Of a DNA stretch of 64,000 bases, positions 1 through 6,245 are shown one piece after another. This DNA is from Helicobacter cetorum (lineage in GTDB: Bacteria > Campylobacterota > Campylobacteria > Campylobacterales > UBA6016): positions 1-64,000 of the forward strand of contig DZAX01000006.1 in the NCBI GenBank assembly GCA_022729705.1, in the 5' to 3' direction. How positions within the stretch are numbered: the stretch's first letter is position 1; the number at the start of each line of letters is the position of its first letter. A program made the position numbers and the translations under genes. The notes below the pieces were generated by a model. The model was not told the origin of the DNA and made no database searches. It worked only from the letters and a program-made list of their open reading frames with translations.

Positions 1-108
1 TGGATGCAAAGATGTTGTCTCGCTGTATATCTATAGCAAGAGAGGGCGAGGTTAGAATACCTTGCGTAAACTGAAATGTCAACCCCTTTCCCAACAAACG
101 GATTTCAT

Positions 109-1026
109 TTAAGCGCATAGCTTAACCTCTGTTTCGTTTTTACTCAAGTTCCCTTTTTCAAAGTATCGCTTTTCATGCTCCGCCGGACTCATATTGCCAA
201 GCGCCGAGTGTAGCCTTTGTCTATTATAAAACACCTCTATATATTCAAATATCTGTTTTCTTACCTCATCAGGTGCTCTCTAGGATGGATTGGTTCTATA
301 CTCAGTTTTTAGCGTAGCAAAAAAGCTCTCCGAAACAGCGTTATCCCAGCAGTTACCTTTTCGACTCATACTTTGTATCACTCCATATCTTGCAAGCAGT
401 TCCCTATGCTCTTTTGAAGAGTACTGAGAGCCTCTATCTGTATGCCATAATAACCCTGGTCTTGGAGCTCTTGATTTAATAGCCGCTATTAGCGCATCGT
501 TTACTAAGAGTGTTTTCATATTTGATTTTAAAGACCAGCCTACTACTTTTCTTGAGAATAGATCTATAACGACGGCTAAATATAAAAAGCCTATTGTTGT
601 TGGTATATAAGTTATATCCCCAACAAACTTTTGGTTTGGCTTTATAGCTTTAAACTCTCTATTTAATAAGTTCTCAGCAGCTGTTCGTGTATGATTTGCA
701 TCAGGAGCTTGCAATCGAAACTTTCTTTTAGTCTTTACCTTGAGCCCACTCTTTTTCATTAGCTTTGTTATGCGTTTTCTAGATACAACAAGACCGCCCT
801 GTAAAAGCTTCGCCTTTAGTCTTCTTGCTCCTGAGTGTGAACGAGCGTTTATAAACTCTTTTTTAATAACATCGCAAAGAGCCGTATCTTCTTGTTGTTT
901 TTTAGACTCAGAGATAACGCCGTTTTTCTTATAGTAGTAATAGTTGTTTGCTTTAACGCCTAGTATTTTACACATGGTGCTAACGCTAAATAAATTACGA
1001 TGCTCTAATATAAAGGCGTATTTCAC
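109..1026 (-). pseudogene. IS3-family transposase orfB with in-frame TAG at 280-282
   Basis: Tracked ORF (280-1026) ends at TAG, but the same frame continues [44 protein letters not shown]... to a TAA at 109-111, which is the normal IS3 orfB C-terminus. GTG start overlaps the end of orfA. Confidence 0.85.
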
Positions 1027-1325
1027 TGAGCTTCTCTTGCAAAATACGCCGTAGCCTTTTTTAGAATCTCACACTCTTGCCTTAATCTGACGTTATCTTT
1101 TTTTAGATTTATGAGTTCTTGCTGTTGGGGTGTTCTATTCAGAGATGCCGGAGATTGAATATTGAGAGCTTTTCTGTGTTCTGTTATCCAGTTGTACAGC
1201 GTATTTGTTTTTAAGCCTAAATCTTTTGCTGTTTGGACTATGGATATAGAACCGTTTAGAGCTAAATCTACGGCTTCTTTTTTGAACTCTTTTGAGTATT
1301 GCGGTTTATTGTTTACTAGGCTCAT
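1023..1325 (-). CDS. IS3-family transposase orfA (HTH)
   Basis: YSKEFKKEAVDLALNGSISIVQTAKDLGLKTNTLYNWI: transposase_8/IS3 OrfA pattern, followed by a coiled coil. Confidence 0.9.
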   Translation of the reverse strand: MSLVNNKPQYSKEFKKEAVDLALNGSISIVQTAKDLGLKTNTLYNWITEHRKALNIQSPASLNRTPQQQELINLKKDNVRLRQECEILKKATAYFAREAQ

Positions 1326-1531
1326 GATGGAAACTCCCGTGTATTTCTTGGATTATAGACTATCTGTGTTTTTGGATAGGGTGTAATCCGTTTGTTGGGG
1401 ATATGGTAGCCATTTCACTGATGAGTGGGTGGAGTTTTTTTGGGAGAGGGATGGCGGGGATAGTTGATTTATACGCCACAAGATAAACCAAAAAATCAGT
1501 ATAATCAAATAATTTGTAGATAGGGTAAGAG

Positions 1532-2626
1532 ATGAAAAGCCATTTTTTAAAAAATGTTGAATTTGCTAATTTTAAATGTTTTGAAAAGATAGAAGTTAAA
1601 GGGCTGAAAAATGTAAACTTAGTAGGCGGTAAAAACAATATTGGTAAAACTTCTTTCTTGGAAGGTTTAGAAATATTAGTTAATCCAAAATCGGCACTTG
1701 GCTTGAGAATTAAGTGTGTAGATATTTTAAGACGAAGACAGACTAAGAAAAGTATGAATCTATTTCAACCAATAATTTATCAAGCATTAAAATTTGATTT
1801 TTTTGCCTCTTCGGATAAAATAATAAAATTTACAAGTAATGTGGCGAGTGCAAATATAAAATATATTCCTATCAATGAAAAAATTGAAGCTTCAAATATT
1901 CATGCTGTAAATCCTCAACAAATTCAAGATGTTTATACATCAAAAATCGCATCTATTCCATTTATGGAATTTACTCTTGGAGATGAAAAATTTGCTTCTC
2001 CGATGCAAGATGTAGAAAATAATTTTTTTAATGCAGATGAGGCAAATGTTAAAAACAATGTAGTATTTATTTCATCGTGCACAACTGATGAATCGGCTTT
2101 AGCTACTTATTATGGTTATTTATTGAGTTTAGATAAAGAAGATGATTTGAATGCTCATCTGAATAACTTTGACACAGATATTCTTTCCCTAAAGGCTATT
2201 CCGGTAAATATCCAAGGGAATTATACTAGTGAATTGAAATTGAAATTGAAAAGTAGAAATACTTTAGTTAAGCTCTCATCTTTGGGCGAAGGCATTAATC
2301 GGTACATAGCAATTTTATGTGCCATATGGGCTAGTAAGGATGGTTATTTATTTATTGATGAGATAGAAAATGGAATACATTATACAAACTATAAAAAGCT
2401 TTGGCGGATTATTTTTGAAGCTTCAAAAATGGCAAATTGTCAAGTGTTTGCGACAAGCCATTCGAAAGAGTGCATAGAAGCATTTAATGAAGTAAATACA
2501 GATAATAAAGGTATTTATATTGAGTTTTATAAAAATCAAAAAACGGGATTAATTACAGTAAATGAAAGAGATAATGAGCAGTTAAATTATGCGCTCACGC
2601 ATGGTGGGAGCGTAAGGGGTGAGTAG
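1532..2626 (+). CDS. OLD/AAA_15-type ABC-like ATPase, candidate defence ATPase
   Basis: FANFKCFEKIEVKGLKNVNLVGGKNNIGKTSFLEGLE (Walker A), LSSLGEGINR (signature), YLFIDEIENGIHY (Walker B), ATSHS (switch His). Confidence 0.85.
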   Translation: MKSHFLKNVEFANFKCFEKIEVKGLKNVNLVGGKNNIGKTSFLEGLEILVNPKSALGLRIKCVDILRRRQTKKSMNLFQPIIYQALKFDFFASSDKIIKFTSNVASANIKYIPINEKIEASNIHAVNPQQIQDVYTSKIASIPFMEFTLGDEKFASPMQDVENNFFNADEANVKNNVVFISSCTTDESALATYYGYLLSLDKEDDLNAHLNNFDTDILSLKAIPVNIQGNYTSELKLKLKSRNTLVKLSSLGEGINRYIAILCAIWASKDGYLFIDEIENGIHYTNYKKLWRIIFEASKMANCQVFATSHSKECIEAFNEVNTDNKGIYIEFYKNQKTGLITVNERDNEQLNYALTHGGSVRGE

Positions 2627-3305
2627 TCTTGCTATAGTGGAAAGTCATAACGATAAATTTTTTATCGAAAAGGTGTCCGAAACTTTAGGACTAGGCAATA
2701 TATCTATAGATGAGCCAACATGCAATCCTTATGACTTTGAATGCCTTGATGGTCTGACAAAATTAGGTCGTAAACTTAATGAAGTAAAAACTAGGGTTGA
2801 TAGGTATGAAAAAATTGGAATTATTTTAGATGCCGATGATGAGGGAGTTAAGAAACGGATTGAATTTATAAATAGGCATTTGGCGGACATTTGTTCCGAT
2901 GTGAAATTGACGCAAATAAATGAATTTGTAAAATCGGCAGAACTTGATGTTGAAATTGGTTGCTACATTATGAATGTTGATGGGAGCGGCGAGCTTGATA
3001 CGGTTTTGAAGGCTATCAAAAATAAAGAGTCCATACATGCAGATTGTTTAGAATCCTGGAAGGAGTGTCTAGAACAAAAAGGGAAAGAAATTACAAAAAA
3101 AGATTTTGATAAATTCTGGGTTAGTAATTATTTAAGATTCGATACTTGTAGCAAGGAAGAGAAAAAGCAAGCAGACAAAAAATGCAAAGGCGAAGTAGCT
3201 ATAAAAAAAGACATTTGGAATTTTGATAGTCCAGTTTTAGGAGACTTGAAATCTTTTTTATTGCAGTTGGCATCAATACACGGGAGTTATTATGACAAAT
3301 TCTAA
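2619..3305 (+). CDS. DUF3226/TOPRIM-like protein, partner of upstream ATPase
   Basis: SLAIVESHNDKFF...KIGIILDADDEG: conserved Glu and DxD of TOPRIM/DUF3226 folds; overlaps the ATPase ORF by 8 nt. Confidence 0.75.
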   Translation: MSSLAIVESHNDKFFIEKVSETLGLGNISIDEPTCNPYDFECLDGLTKLGRKLNEVKTRVDRYEKIGIILDADDEGVKKRIEFINRHLADICSDVKLTQINEFVKSAELDVEIGCYIMNVDGSGELDTVLKAIKNKESIHADCLESWKECLEQKGKEITKKDFDKFWVSNYLRFDTCSKEEKKQADKKCKGEVAIKKDIWNFDSPVLGDLKSFLLQLASIHGSYYDKF

Positions 3306-3447
3306 CACCGAAAAAATAACCTTTAATATGCCTGTAGAGCTAAAAAATCAGGCAATGCAACAAAAAGAGCTAAAGAAATGGAAGAGGGCGGCTGAAAGCA
3401 CCGCAAAGGATAAAAAATACACTGCCGATATGAAAGGGTTTGGGTAA
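3292..3447 (+). CDS. 51-aa small ORF, RHH-like N-terminus
   Basis: Read directly: MTNSNTEKITFNMPVELKNQAMQQKELKKWKRAAESTAKDKKYTADMKGFG*; overlaps the end of the TOPRIM ORF; below the ORF-track length cut-off. Confidence 0.45.
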   Translation: MTNSNTEKITFNMPVELKNQAMQQKELKKWKRAAESTAKDKKYTADMKGFG

Positions 3448-3547
3448 CCACTCACCTACCCACCAAAAACGGAACTAAAATTGCTCTTTGTTGAGCATGA
3501 AACGTGAAGAAGCTGATAAAAGAGTGCCTGACACTCATTTCATGCTT

Positions 3548-3646
3548 TTACTGCTTCTTTACTTGATATTCTTGATATTTCACCAAGAGCACAAAAGCCA
3601 ATCCCAATATGAAAATTGCTGTAGCACCTATTTCTAAGCTACTCAT
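3548..3646 (-). CDS. 32-aa single-TM small protein
   Basis: MSSLEIGATAIFILGLAFVLLVKYQEYQVKKQ*; start codon overlaps the stop of the 61-aa membrane ORF; AAGGGAGCT-type RBS region lies upstream. Confidence 0.45.
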   Translation of the reverse strand: MSSLEIGATAIFILGLAFVLLVKYQEYQVKKQ

Positions 3647-3824
3647 CTTTAGCTCCCTTATTAATAAGATATGTTCCCATTAGCACTATCAATATTGCTA
3701 CTGCAACAGTGTAAAGCGACAAGCCCTCGCCTTTTACCAGCGGAGTAATCAATGCTATGGCTACAATAATTTTTACGAAATCATAGAGAAGCTTTCCGAC
3801 TTCCTTCAGTGTCTCTTTTTTCAT
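3639..3824 (-). CDS. 61-aa two-TM membrane protein
   Basis: Two hydrophobic segments (IIVAIALITPLV, YTVAVAILIVLMGTYLI); reasonable start. Confidence 0.55.
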   Translation of the reverse strand: MKKETLKEVGKLLYDFVKIIVAIALITPLVKGEGLSLYTVAVAILIVLMGTYLINKGAKDE

Positions 3825-4048
3825 AATTCAATTATAGCAAAAAAATAAAATAAAAAGTTGAGATTTTTAAGAGAGAATCTGCATTATGTGAAAAAAAAGA
3901 GGGGAAGACGTTCCCCCCCCCTTGAGTGGGAACGAAGCAAGAAAAAAATAAGAAAATGCATCAATATCAGGGTCTGACCCCCATATTTAGTCTTTGGTGT
4001 TGCGCATAAAAGAGTGCCTTAAAAGAGTGCCTGACACCTTTTTTTATT

Positions 4049-6088
4049 TTAATCCTTAATCGTATAAACAAAATCATCACCACTTAATCCAAACTTTTCA
4101 CATATTAATTTTAGATAAGTCATTTTTGCATTAGCACCTAAATTTGTTTCTATAAAATAATTTTCTTTTATCTCATATGCTATTCTACAATCACTTTTAA
4201 TACTTGAAATAATTCTTTGTTTTTTCCCACTAAAATCATCATCGCTCAATAACGACTTTGCAATATCCCAGTTAGAATCAACTAAAATCTTTACAACATT
4301 TACGAATAAATCATTCCAAGATTTAGCACTATATTTTTCGTTCAATAGCTCAAAAGAAGATGGTTTTGTACCCGCAATATCAATATCATCGCCAAGAGTA
4401 TAAAAGTCTTTATCTGTGTTTTGCAAATCAAGTTTTAAGTCTAGCTCTTTTGGGTATTTCCATAATATTTTTGCATCCTCAAAGATAACACCTGCTCTTT
4501 TGTTTATCTCTGTATCATCCCAACTTATAGCATTAATAAAATATTGATTGAGTTTTAGTCTGCTTTGTTCATTTAAAATTTGTTTTTTCTCTTCAAAAGA
4601 TCTGTTTCCGAGTTGAGTATTATCGCCTGAAAGTGACAAGTTGCCGATATTATGCAAATATCTGTCATGAATTATTTGATATTTATCTCCAAGTTTTGCT
4701 TTCCAAGAGTTTGTCAAGGTTTGTGGCATAAAATGTTCTATTGAAAGGGTAGCAATGTCCACCTTTTCATTGTTATCTTTATTTTCAAGCCTGAGTAAAA
4801 TAAATTTTATATTTTTTAGATTATAAGCATCCCTTGAAGTAAAATCAGCCCTAAACTCTTCATTATCTGGAAAAATTGCAGAACCTCTTTTGGAAAATAA
4901 AAGTGTTGCAAAATATTTACTAAAATATTCATAACTAAAATTCTGAATCTCTAAAATATCACTAAACAAAGATGCAAAAACTTTATTTAGGGCATTGGTT
5001 GGCTTATTGCAAACCATTCTTCTGATTATGTAACTTTCAATAATTTCCAAAGTTGCAAACAACTCTTTTTCATTAATCAGTTGTTTATTGAAATTTTCTA
5101 CAACAGACAATAAAAAAGGATAAACGACCCCAATTTTAAGTTGTTTTAGATTTTTTAAATTTTGAGCATATATCTCATTATGTGGGAATAGAAAAGTTTT
5201 ATAAATTTTTGAATATTCTAAAAGTTCACCCAGTAGCTCTTTTGTTTGGATCTTTTGAGAAGAAACGAATAGTTTAAAAGCTTCATAAGTATCATCTTTG
5301 TTTGGTATTTTATTTTGTTTCATCGTCAAATAATCTCTTACAAAATTTGATATATTTTCACTTGTCAAATTCTCTTCTATTTTAAACCAATATTTTTCAA
5401 ACAGTTCAATTTGTTCATCAGCTTCTTTATCCATAAGTAAAAAATTTCTTATCAAATCCGATTGAGACAAACTAACCCCCGTTGAATTGATACTTTCAAA
5501 AATAAGCTGTGGATTATCATCTCTACGATTAAGGGCAATATGAACTATAAATAACTTTTTAAATCCAAGATAGAGTGTTTTATAATCTCCGAAACTTTGA
5601 ATTTTATTTTTAAAAAAATTATAGTTTTTGTAGATATTTGAATTTGTATCTATTGTGTCAAAGTCATTTTTTAGTAGTTTTTTGAAAACTTCATCGTCTT
5701 TTTTGATAGGCTTTAGTTTTAATTTATTTTTTTCATCAAGTCTTTTATTGATTAAAAAACTTTCAAGTATTTCATCTTTTAAGTCTTCATCGTCAATAAC
5801 ATCATGCAAAGCTTTTAGAAAAAGTGTCGAAGTTGTAAGCCGTTGTTGACCATCAATGATTACATATTCTTTAAAATCAATCGAATCAGTATCGCTGTTT
5901 GCAACATAAACAACAGAACCCATAAAATGACTTTTTCGTTCACTTTGAAGCCCTATATTTTTAATATCTTCAAACAGTTGCAAACAATTTTTTTCTTTCC
6001 AATCATAATTTCTTTGATACACTGGAATAATAAATCTTGTCTTATTTGAAGATAAAAAATCTTCTATACTTATTTGTCTTGCTTCCAC
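4049..6088 (-). CDS. DUF262 + DUF1524 (HNH) protein, GmrSD-like
   Basis: SNKTRFIIPVYQRNYDWKEKNCLQLFEDI...IDGQQRLTT (DUF262) and IEHFMPQTLTNSW...LHNIGNLSLSGDNTQLGNRSFEEKK (DUF1524). GTG start at 6088 with AAGGAGAAATA RBS; the tracked start at 6175 lies in the upstream repeat. Confidence 0.85.
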   Translation of the reverse strand: MEARQISIEDFLSSNKTRFIIPVYQRNYDWKEKNCLQLFEDIKNIGLQSERKSHFMGSVVYVANSDTDSIDFKEYVIIDGQQRLTTSTLFLKALHDVIDDEDLKDEILESFLINKRLDEKNKLKLKPIKKDDEVFKKLLKNDFDTIDTNSNIYKNYNFFKNKIQSFGDYKTLYLGFKKLFIVHIALNRRDDNPQLIFESINSTGVSLSQSDLIRNFLLMDKEADEQIELFEKYWFKIEENLTSENISNFVRDYLTMKQNKIPNKDDTYEAFKLFVSSQKIQTKELLGELLEYSKIYKTFLFPHNEIYAQNLKNLKQLKIGVVYPFLLSVVENFNKQLINEKELFATLEIIESYIIRRMVCNKPTNALNKVFASLFSDILEIQNFSYEYFSKYFATLLFSKRGSAIFPDNEEFRADFTSRDAYNLKNIKFILLRLENKDNNEKVDIATLSIEHFMPQTLTNSWKAKLGDKYQIIHDRYLHNIGNLSLSGDNTQLGNRSFEEKKQILNEQSRLKLNQYFINAISWDDTEINKRAGVIFEDAKILWKYPKELDLKLDLQNTDKDFYTLGDDIDIAGTKPSSFELLNEKYSAKSWNDLFVNVVKILVDSNWDIAKSLLSDDDFSGKKQRIISSIKSDCRIAYEIKENYFIETNLGANAKMTYLKLICEKFGLSGDDFVYTIKD

Positions 6089-6115
6089 TATTTCTCCTTT
6101 TTTATTAAAATATTG

Positions 6116-6245
6116 TAACCACTCACCTACATGCCAAAAAAGTTGATTTTGACCTAGATAAGCGTCAAAAAGCACTCATTTTGAAGTCAAATTTGGCAAA
6201 AACTAAGCAAAATAATTAAAAATTAAGAGGTAGGTGAGTGCTTAC
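6116..6245. repeat. ~130-bp element with 16-bp terminal inverted repeats (GTAACCACTCACCTAC / GTAGGTGAGTGCTTAC)
   Basis: 6116-6131 and 6230-6245 are inverse complements with one mismatch. The same left motif recurs at ~3444-3459. Confidence 0.6.

What the first reader, a model, noticed from the sequence alone, without database searches (positions are those of the whole stretch)
1532..3447. Candidate two-gene defence module: OLD-type ATPase + TOPRIM/DUF3226-like effector, with an untracked small RHH-like ORF
The ATPase has complete Walker A, signature and Walker B motifs. It overlaps by 8 nt a protein with TOPRIM-like residues (VES near the N-terminus, DADD). ATPase + TOPRIM pairs are the architecture of OLD/Gabija/PARIS-type antiphage systems, but the ~365 + 228 aa sizes do not obviously match the canonical versions. 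A 51-aa ORF (3292-3447) overlapping the effector end begins like a ribbon-helix-helix protein and may be a third component or a truncated antitoxin. It sits directly beside an IS3 element.
Basis: partly seen in the sequence, partly recalled or inferred. Interest (0 to 1): 0.72.

Follow-up and report, generated by a model that had tools for sequence, protein, structure and literature searches.

The report
AbiL-like ATPase–TOPRIM defence gene pair
This is an intact two-gene unit, found across several bacterial phyla, that probably acts as a phage alarm: an ATPase with a rapidly changing, swappable middle section senses infection and releases a nuclease-like partner; the proposed third gene is a dead fragment of an unrelated toxin–antitoxin pair.

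Summary
The ATPase (1532-2626, 364 aa) and the second protein (2619-3305, 228 aa) are intact and overlap by 8 nt, as described. The second protein is Pfam DUF3226 (E 1e-22), a TOPRIM-superfamily domain keeping the Glu and DxD residues. All 32 effectors tested match PADLOC's PDC-M38B, and all 29 ATPases match PDC-M38A and AbiLi. The pair is therefore an AbiL/PARIS-like split ATPase–TOPRIM module, already listed as the untested candidate PDC-M38. It is not OLD, Gabija or PARIS proper. Homologues are always paired and occur in several phyla.

The third ORF is not a component. It is an internally deleted RHH antitoxin relic of a MazF-type pair, with its stop supplied by an IS66 end.

New here: the ATPase middle (about residues 47-235) is hypervariable and swappable. 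Two orthologous loci share 98% effector identity, 100% of the N-terminal 46 residues and near-identical flanks, but only 37% in that segment. That points to a sensor cassette. Tandem arrays of pairs, insertion into housekeeping operons and a conserved GTG-in-overlap junction were also seen. Defence function and effector target are inferred, not shown.

The parts
72..1417 (-). IS3-family element (orfA 1023-1325, orfB 280-1026), upstream neighbour, not part of the module
   Evidence: Pfam HTH_Tnp_1, HTH_21, rve; boundaries from other copies in the genome
1500..1505 (+). Possible -10 box TATAAT, 26 nt upstream of the ATPase ATG; weak inference
   Evidence: Sequence; the sigma-70 scan did not list it
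1532..2626 (+). ATPase/sensor gene, 364 aa: SMC/Rad50/RecF-type ABC ATPase, AbiLi/PDC-M38A family; core about residues 1-46 and 236-364, hypervariable segment about 47-235, invariant C-terminal RG(E)
   Evidence: Pfam AAA_15 3.7e-22; PADLOC AbiLi 4.7e-52, PDC-M38A 1.2e-49; model pLDDT 85, Foldseek E 2.6e-13 PtuA, 2.8e-11 AriA
1670..2236 (+). Variable (putative sensor) segment of the ATPase, about residues 47-235
   Evidence: Lowest identity in 374 of 378 homologue pairs; swapped between L103 and L104
2606..2626 (+). Coupled junction: SD-like GGGAG inside ATPase codons, then GTGAGTAG with the effector GTG start and ATPase TAG stop overlapping by 8 nt
   Evidence: Same GTGARTAR overlap in 25 of 28 loci across phyla
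2619..3305 (+). Effector gene, 228 aa: DUF3226 (TOPRIM superfamily), PDC-M38B; candidate catalytic E8, D71, D73, E125/E127. Last ~11 residues are not conserved and run into the relic's start
   Evidence: PF11536 1e-22; 32/32 family members match DUF3226 and PDC-M38B; model pLDDT 88.5
3292..3447 (+). 51-aa ORF: relic of an RHH antitoxin gene of a MazF/PemK-type pair (internal deletion, truncated 3' end); not part of the module
   Evidence: Intact 79-85 aa relatives sit directly before mazF in G021, G026, G052
3444..3516 (+). IS66-family end fragment (GTAACCACTCACC... and first codons of the transposase); supplies the relic's TAA stop
   Evidence: 73 bp shared with C17 and C41; TIR alignment
4049..6175 (-). 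GmrSD/DUF262-DUF1524 type IV restriction-like protein, 708 aa, neighbouring defence-type gene
   Evidence: PF03235 8.5e-39, PF07510 1.2e-22; PADLOC Orf5 5.8e-142, HEC-06 1e-66

Best explanation
An AbiL-like (PADLOC PDC-M38) abortive-infection/toxin–antitoxin-type defence module. The ABC-type ATPase is made first. Through its conserved core and invariant C-terminal tail it oligomerises and holds the DUF3226/TOPRIM effector inactive; the effector is made only by translational coupling. The hypervariable ATPase middle segment recognises a phage product. That changes the ATPase state and releases or activates the effector, a two-metal nuclease (E8, D71, D73, E125/E127), which cuts a cellular nucleic acid (more likely RNA/tRNA, as AriB does, than DNA) and stops the infected cell. 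Shown: intactness, family, obligatory pairing, co-evolution, coupled junction, catalytic-residue conservation, hypervariable and swappable segment, patchy cross-phylum spread, copies broken in several genomes. Inferred: phage sensing by that segment, holding of the effector by the ATPase, nuclease activity and its target, abortive outcome.
For: Family matches to known and candidate defence ATPases and effectors. ATPase fold matches PtuA, retron-Eco8 OLD and AriA. All evaluable homologues are paired, ATPase upstream: all loci with enough upstream contig, and 28/28 DUF3226 loci. GTG-in-overlap coupling in 25/28. Mantel r 0.74. Variable segment lowest in 374/378 pairs. Cassette swap between L103 and L104: flanks, N-terminus, C-terminus and effector mostly 92-100% nt, middle 40-64% nt, with dS 0.04 vs 1.11. 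Patchy: 9 of 150 relatives with P0002 homologues; cross-phylum. Multicopy and tandem arrays. Literature: AbiL and AAA:TOPRIM pairs behave as antitoxin:toxin (PMC10440598); PARIS mechanism (PMC12409363, PMC11455837).
Against: No experiment on any DUF3226 pair was found: the held library has no paper naming DUF3226, and PDC candidates are described as mostly unvalidated (PMC12988326). Many homologues sit in housekeeping operons (hisH-hisA, purE, rluB, fdhD) rather than defence islands. None was found in viral contigs. Foldseek gave no significant TOPRIM match. In the C55/C61 paralogue the ATPase is broken by an IS while the effector ORF stays intact, so the effector may not be freely toxic, unless coupling silences it.
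Confidence: 0.75

Rival explanations
1. A plain addiction/stress toxin–antitoxin pair (ATPase antitoxin, TOPRIM toxin) with no phage sensing, kept by toxicity on loss.
For: Antitoxin-first order with coupled overlap; NetFlax pairs neutralise in E. coli, and the related A. guerrae AAA pair gave no phage protection in its screen (PMC10440598); insertion into unrelated operons.
Against: The hypervariable, swapped ATPase segment alongside a conserved effector is not expected if the ATPase only binds its own effector; closest named systems are antiphage.
Confidence: 0.13
2. A DNA-repair or chromosome-maintenance pair analogous to RecF (ABC ATPase) plus RecR (TOPRIM), or to the archaeal Cran1 OLD protein with a cell-cycle role.
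For: RecF, Rad50 and SMC profile and fold matches; embedding in housekeeping operons; an OLD-family protein with a non-defence role is known (PMC12796447).
Against: Patchy presence, cross-phylum spread, several copies per genome, and copies broken by IS or frameshift point to a dispensable accessory unit; the RecF match is far below its cut-off (32 of 172 bits).
Confidence: 0.08
3. Three-component system with the RHH-like ORF as regulator or antitoxin.
For: Overlaps the effector end by 14 nt and begins like an RHH protein.
Against: Intact relatives are the antitoxin of a MazF-type toxin, not of this pair; the window copy lacks about 24 internal residues and its 3' end; pair relatives have unrelated downstream genes.
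Confidence: 0.02

Closest known systems
PDC-M38 (PADLOC-DB candidate, M38A ATPase + M38B)
   Same: Both proteins match: window PDC-M38A 1.2e-49 and PDC-M38B 3.2e-8; 29/29 and 32/32 of the wider family match.
   Different: Only a candidate; no experimental study found. The window effector covers about two thirds of the best M38B profile, so it is a divergent branch.
AbiL of Lactococcus (AbiLi ATPase + AbiLii RloB/OLD_TOPRIM)
   Same: ATPase matches AbiLi full length (4.7e-52); same two-gene ATPase + TOPRIM architecture (PMC10440598).
   Different: Window effector does not match AbiLii; only 2 of 32 relatives do, weakly (9.9e-5). It is DUF3226, not RloB.
PARIS (AriA + AriB)
   Same: Split ABC ATPase sensor + TOPRIM effector; ATPase fold match to AriA 2.8e-11.
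   Different: AriB is DUF4435; the window effector does not match AriB. The same genome has a separate PARIS-like pair on C10 that does.
OLD / Gabija GajA / retron-Eco8 OLD
   Same: ABC ATPase plus TOPRIM chemistry.
   Different: Those are single fused polypeptides, with a helicase (Gabija) or RT/ncRNA (retron); no fusion or such partner in the window.
MADS mad3/mad4
   Same: Weak matches: mad3 to 9 of 29 ATPases, mad4 to 4 of 32 effectors.
   Different: No other MADS genes next to the window pair.

Membership tests
PDC-M38 (PADLOC candidate) | Gene matching PDC-M38A | tested here: met
   1.2e-49, residues 6-361 to 2-382/383
PDC-M38 (PADLOC candidate) | Adjacent gene matching PDC-M38B | tested here: met
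   3.2e-8 best profile, 5-138 to 6-149/219; all 32 relatives match. PADLOC's own coverage threshold was not applied.
PDC-M38 (PADLOC candidate) | Antiphage activity | not testable with these tools
   No experiment found in the held library; PDCs described as mostly unvalidated (PMC12988326)
AbiL | AbiLi-type ATPase | tested here: met
   4.7e-52, 5-356 to 1-334/340
AbiL | AbiLii (RloB/OLD_TOPRIM) partner | tested here: not met
   No AbiLii match for the window effector up to E 1
PARIS | AriB (DUF4435) effector | tested here: not met
   No AriB or DUF4435 match up to E 1
OLD / Gabija | ATPase and TOPRIM fused in one protein; GajB helicase for Gabija | tested here: not met
   Two separate ORFs; downstream is a relic and a GmrSD gene
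TOPRIM superfamily (effector) | Glu after beta-1 and DxD after beta-3 conserved | tested here: met
   E8, D71, D73 invariant in 32; predicted strands 2-7 and 63-71 precede them
TOPRIM superfamily (effector) | Profile match to TOPRIM models | tested here: met
   Window protein itself only 0.014, under cut-off; relatives to Toprim 1.3e-4 and OLD-like_TOPRIM 1.9e-4/8.6e-4
TOPRIM superfamily (effector) | Fold match to solved TOPRIM structures | tested here: inconclusive
   No hit at E<=0.001; topoisomerase II core 0.05 and a PARIS complex chain 0.14 among non-significant hits
SMC/Rad50/RecF-type ABC ATPase | Walker A, signature, Walker B, switch His and fold | tested here: met
   Invariant motif residues; Foldseek 271 hits at E<=0.001
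MazEF/PemIK antitoxin (51-aa ORF) | Complete RHH antitoxin followed by a MazF toxin gene | tested here: not met
   Window copy lacks an internal segment and its 3' end; no toxin gene follows

The most novel reading that the evidence does not exclude
DUF3226 modules are a broad, uncharacterised class of ATPase–TOPRIM immune units whose specificity evolves by swapping a roughly 190-residue sensor cassette inside the ATPase while core, tail and effector stay fixed, and which are often hidden in housekeeping operons and tandem arrays outside defence islands.
Probability: 0.4. Interest if true: 0.72.

Novelty: new member of a known kind. Interest (0 to 1): 0.5.

Why it matters
It ties an uncharacterised domain family (DUF3226) to the split ATPase–TOPRIM immune systems and gives a concrete, testable idea of where phage recognition resides. 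If the middle segment is the sensor, natural pairs such as L103/L104 are ready-made swaps for finding phage triggers. The housekeeping-operon settings and the poor match of the window effector to existing profiles suggest that defence-island searches under-count this class.

Tried and rejected
Direct sequence search of PDB with the effector and its profile found no relative. Foldseek of the effector against PDB and viral models gave no significant hit. hhalign of the effector profile against three OLD TOPRIM domains and against AriB-like proteins was uninformative, having too few template sequences; with OLD it aligned only motif I. Viral contigs: none. The 'phage' hit was an Acinetobacter record whose stretch carries glyQ/glyS, probably mis-filed host DNA; the 'plasmid' hit is on a 4.1 Mb record, likely a chromosome. 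Promoter scan: no excess over shuffles. Rejected: third-component role of the 51-aa ORF; OLD, Gabija and PARIS membership.

Full report
WHAT IS THERE. The ATPase matches Pfam AAA_15 (3.7e-22) and AAA_21; the second protein matches DUF3226 (1e-22) and, below cut-off, Toprim (0.014). In PADLOC the ATPase matches AbiLi (4.7e-52) and PDC-M38A (1.2e-49), and the second protein matches PDC-M38B (3.2e-8).

THE ATPASE. Predicted structure: mean pLDDT 85, pTM 0.86. Foldseek places it with SMC/Rad50 heads and with the defence ATPases PtuA (2.6e-13), retron-Eco8 OLD (1.3e-12) and AriA (2.8e-11). Walker A, signature, Walker B and switch-His residues are invariant in 29 homologues, as are R362 and G363 at the very C-terminus.

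THE EFFECTOR. Predicted structure: pLDDT 88.5, pTM 0.85. The strand order and the invariant E8 (end of strand 1) and D71/D73 (end of strand 3) follow the TOPRIM pattern. Support from profiles is transitive: relatives match Toprim at 1.3e-4 (4 of 32), OLD-like_TOPRIM at 8.6e-4 (1 of 32), and more distant DUF3226 proteins match OLD-like_TOPRIM at 1.9e-4. Foldseek found nothing significant in PDB or viral models, so the fold assignment is good but not proven.

PAIRING AND SPREAD. A profile-guided scan of named genomes found 38 loci in Campylobacterota, Brachyspira, Beggiatoa/Marithrix/Thiothrix-type Gammaproteobacteria, methylotrophs and Cyanobacteria; none in viral contigs. Each locus with enough upstream contig has the ATPase directly upstream. 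Among more distant DUF3226 loci of the phylum, 28 of 28 that could be evaluated also do. Distribution is patchy: 9 of 150 relatives have P0002 homologues and 46 of 298 genomes of the phylum have any DUF3226. The window's own genome has four DUF3226 loci.

JUNCTION. In 25 of 28 loci the effector start is a GTG inside an 8-nt overlap GTGARTAR that also encodes the ATPase ending ...RGE-stop; the exceptions are two ATGA overlaps and one near-abutting pair (L094 was listed with a GAG first codon because the reference was started one codon early; its junction GGTGAATAA is the same). SD-like GGGAG/GGAGA sequences sit a few bases upstream, within ATPase codons. This implies strict coupling and modest effector synthesis (inference). 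ATPase and effector distances co-vary (Mantel r 0.74, 0 of 2000 shuffles).

THE VARIABLE SEGMENT. In 374 of 378 homologue pairs the ATPase middle (residues 47-235) is the least conserved part. The clearest case is L103 vs L104, the same chromosomal place in two species. The N-terminal 46 residues are identical, the effector is 98% identical and the upstream flank is about 94-97% at DNA level, but the middle is 37% identical in protein and 40-64% in DNA, with dS 0.04, 1.11 and 0.30 for N-terminal, middle and C-terminal parts. That is replacement of a cassette. L084 vs L089 shows another mode: near-uniform dS (0.53-0.67) but dN 0.00, 0.46 and 0.03, i.e. accelerated change in the middle only. L099 vs L100, both upstream of hisA, share 74% in the effector but 13% in the middle. 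In the tandem arrays the first 46 residues are 76-91% identical while residues 47-175 are 9-49%. A segment that diversifies while the partner effector stays fixed is best read as a sensor under arms-race selection; this is inference.

GENOMIC SETTING. The window pair lies between an IS3-family element (72-1417) and an IS66 end fragment (3444-3516), about 0.75 kb from a GmrSD-type gene. Elsewhere the pair is often embedded between co-directional housekeeping genes with gaps near zero: between hisH and hisA (L099, L108, L111; L100 and L118 also abut hisA), next to rluB-like and ABC-F genes (L093), asnB-like (L098), and in the own genome between a U32-peptidase gene and purE on C38, with 4-nt overlaps on the peptidase side. 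Gene names in this paragraph were read from the sequences by eye and not confirmed by a family search. L058 carries four pairs head to tail and L056 two. Copies are also broken: the C55/C61 ATPase by an IS66 element (TIR TGTAACCATTCACCACCC, apparent 8-bp duplication AAAAAAAT) and effector frames split in L112, L116 and L120.

THE SMALL ORF. Relatives of 79-85 aa sit directly before a MazF-type toxin gene in G021, G026 and G052. The window copy aligns to their N-terminal and C-terminal parts but lacks about 24 residues in between. Its TAA stop (3445-3447) lies in the IS66 end that begins at 3444. It is a relic. The effector's last ~11 residues, absent or unconserved in relatives, run into this relic's start.

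MECHANISM. AbiL and PARIS are two-gene systems in which the ATPase restrains or controls a TOPRIM effector; AAA:TOPRIM pairs neutralise in E. coli (PMC10440598); AriA binds a phage trigger and AriB cleaves tRNA (PMC12409363; PMC11455837). The window pair most likely works in the same way with a different effector family. The step least certain is the substrate.

NOVELTY. PADLOC lists PDC-M38, so the pair is a new, divergent member of a known candidate kind. The sensor-cassette swap, the conserved GTG overlap and the housekeeping-operon habit were not found in the literature held here, but that library lacks most subscription papers and preprints.

Noticed in passing
window 4049-6175 (-) and 6115: GmrSD-type gene whose annotated first ~20 codons (including VGEWLQ) come from an IS66-like mobile end at 6115; a complete 131-bp version of that element sits at C40:65600-65730. 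The true start is probably downstream of it.
   Followed up: partly
G000:C40:65600-65730, C58:99821, window 6115: Short non-coding element with inverted GTAACCACTCACC ends, apparently a MITE carried by IS66-type transposase; the 12-base end motif occurs 34 times in the genome against 1 for the reversed control.
   Followed up: partly
window 3517-4060; G000:C17:1-8000; C58:99354-99981; C48:16751-19213: Arrays of repeated ~26-base units (AGAGTGCCTGACAC and GGGTCTGACCC types), resembling REP/RAYT-type sequences, with one copy of the stretch at C19:645-1190 (92%).
   Followed up: no
G000:C10 (L150: 87-1424 and 1411-2277): A separate PARIS-like AriA + AriB (DUF4435) pair in the same genome.
   Followed up: partly
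G000:C58:65.6-66.9 kb, just beyond the window end (L158): Septu-like pair: AAA_15 ATPase followed by a protein with an HNH-like CSYCE...EIEH motif, overlapping by 4 nt.
   Followed up: no
G000:C19 (L014: 4598-6754 and 6751-7638): Long variant of the module: 718-aa ATPase with an extra ~380-aa N-terminal part, full match to PDC-M38A profile PDLC04607 (2.8e-274), plus a 295-aa PDC-M38B effector; the extra part weakly matches PD-Lambda-5_A.
   Followed up: partly
L011: 6179-6659 (-), downstream of the C55 pair: DUF4160/DUF2442-like small gene pair downstream of the effector (by eye).
   Followed up: no
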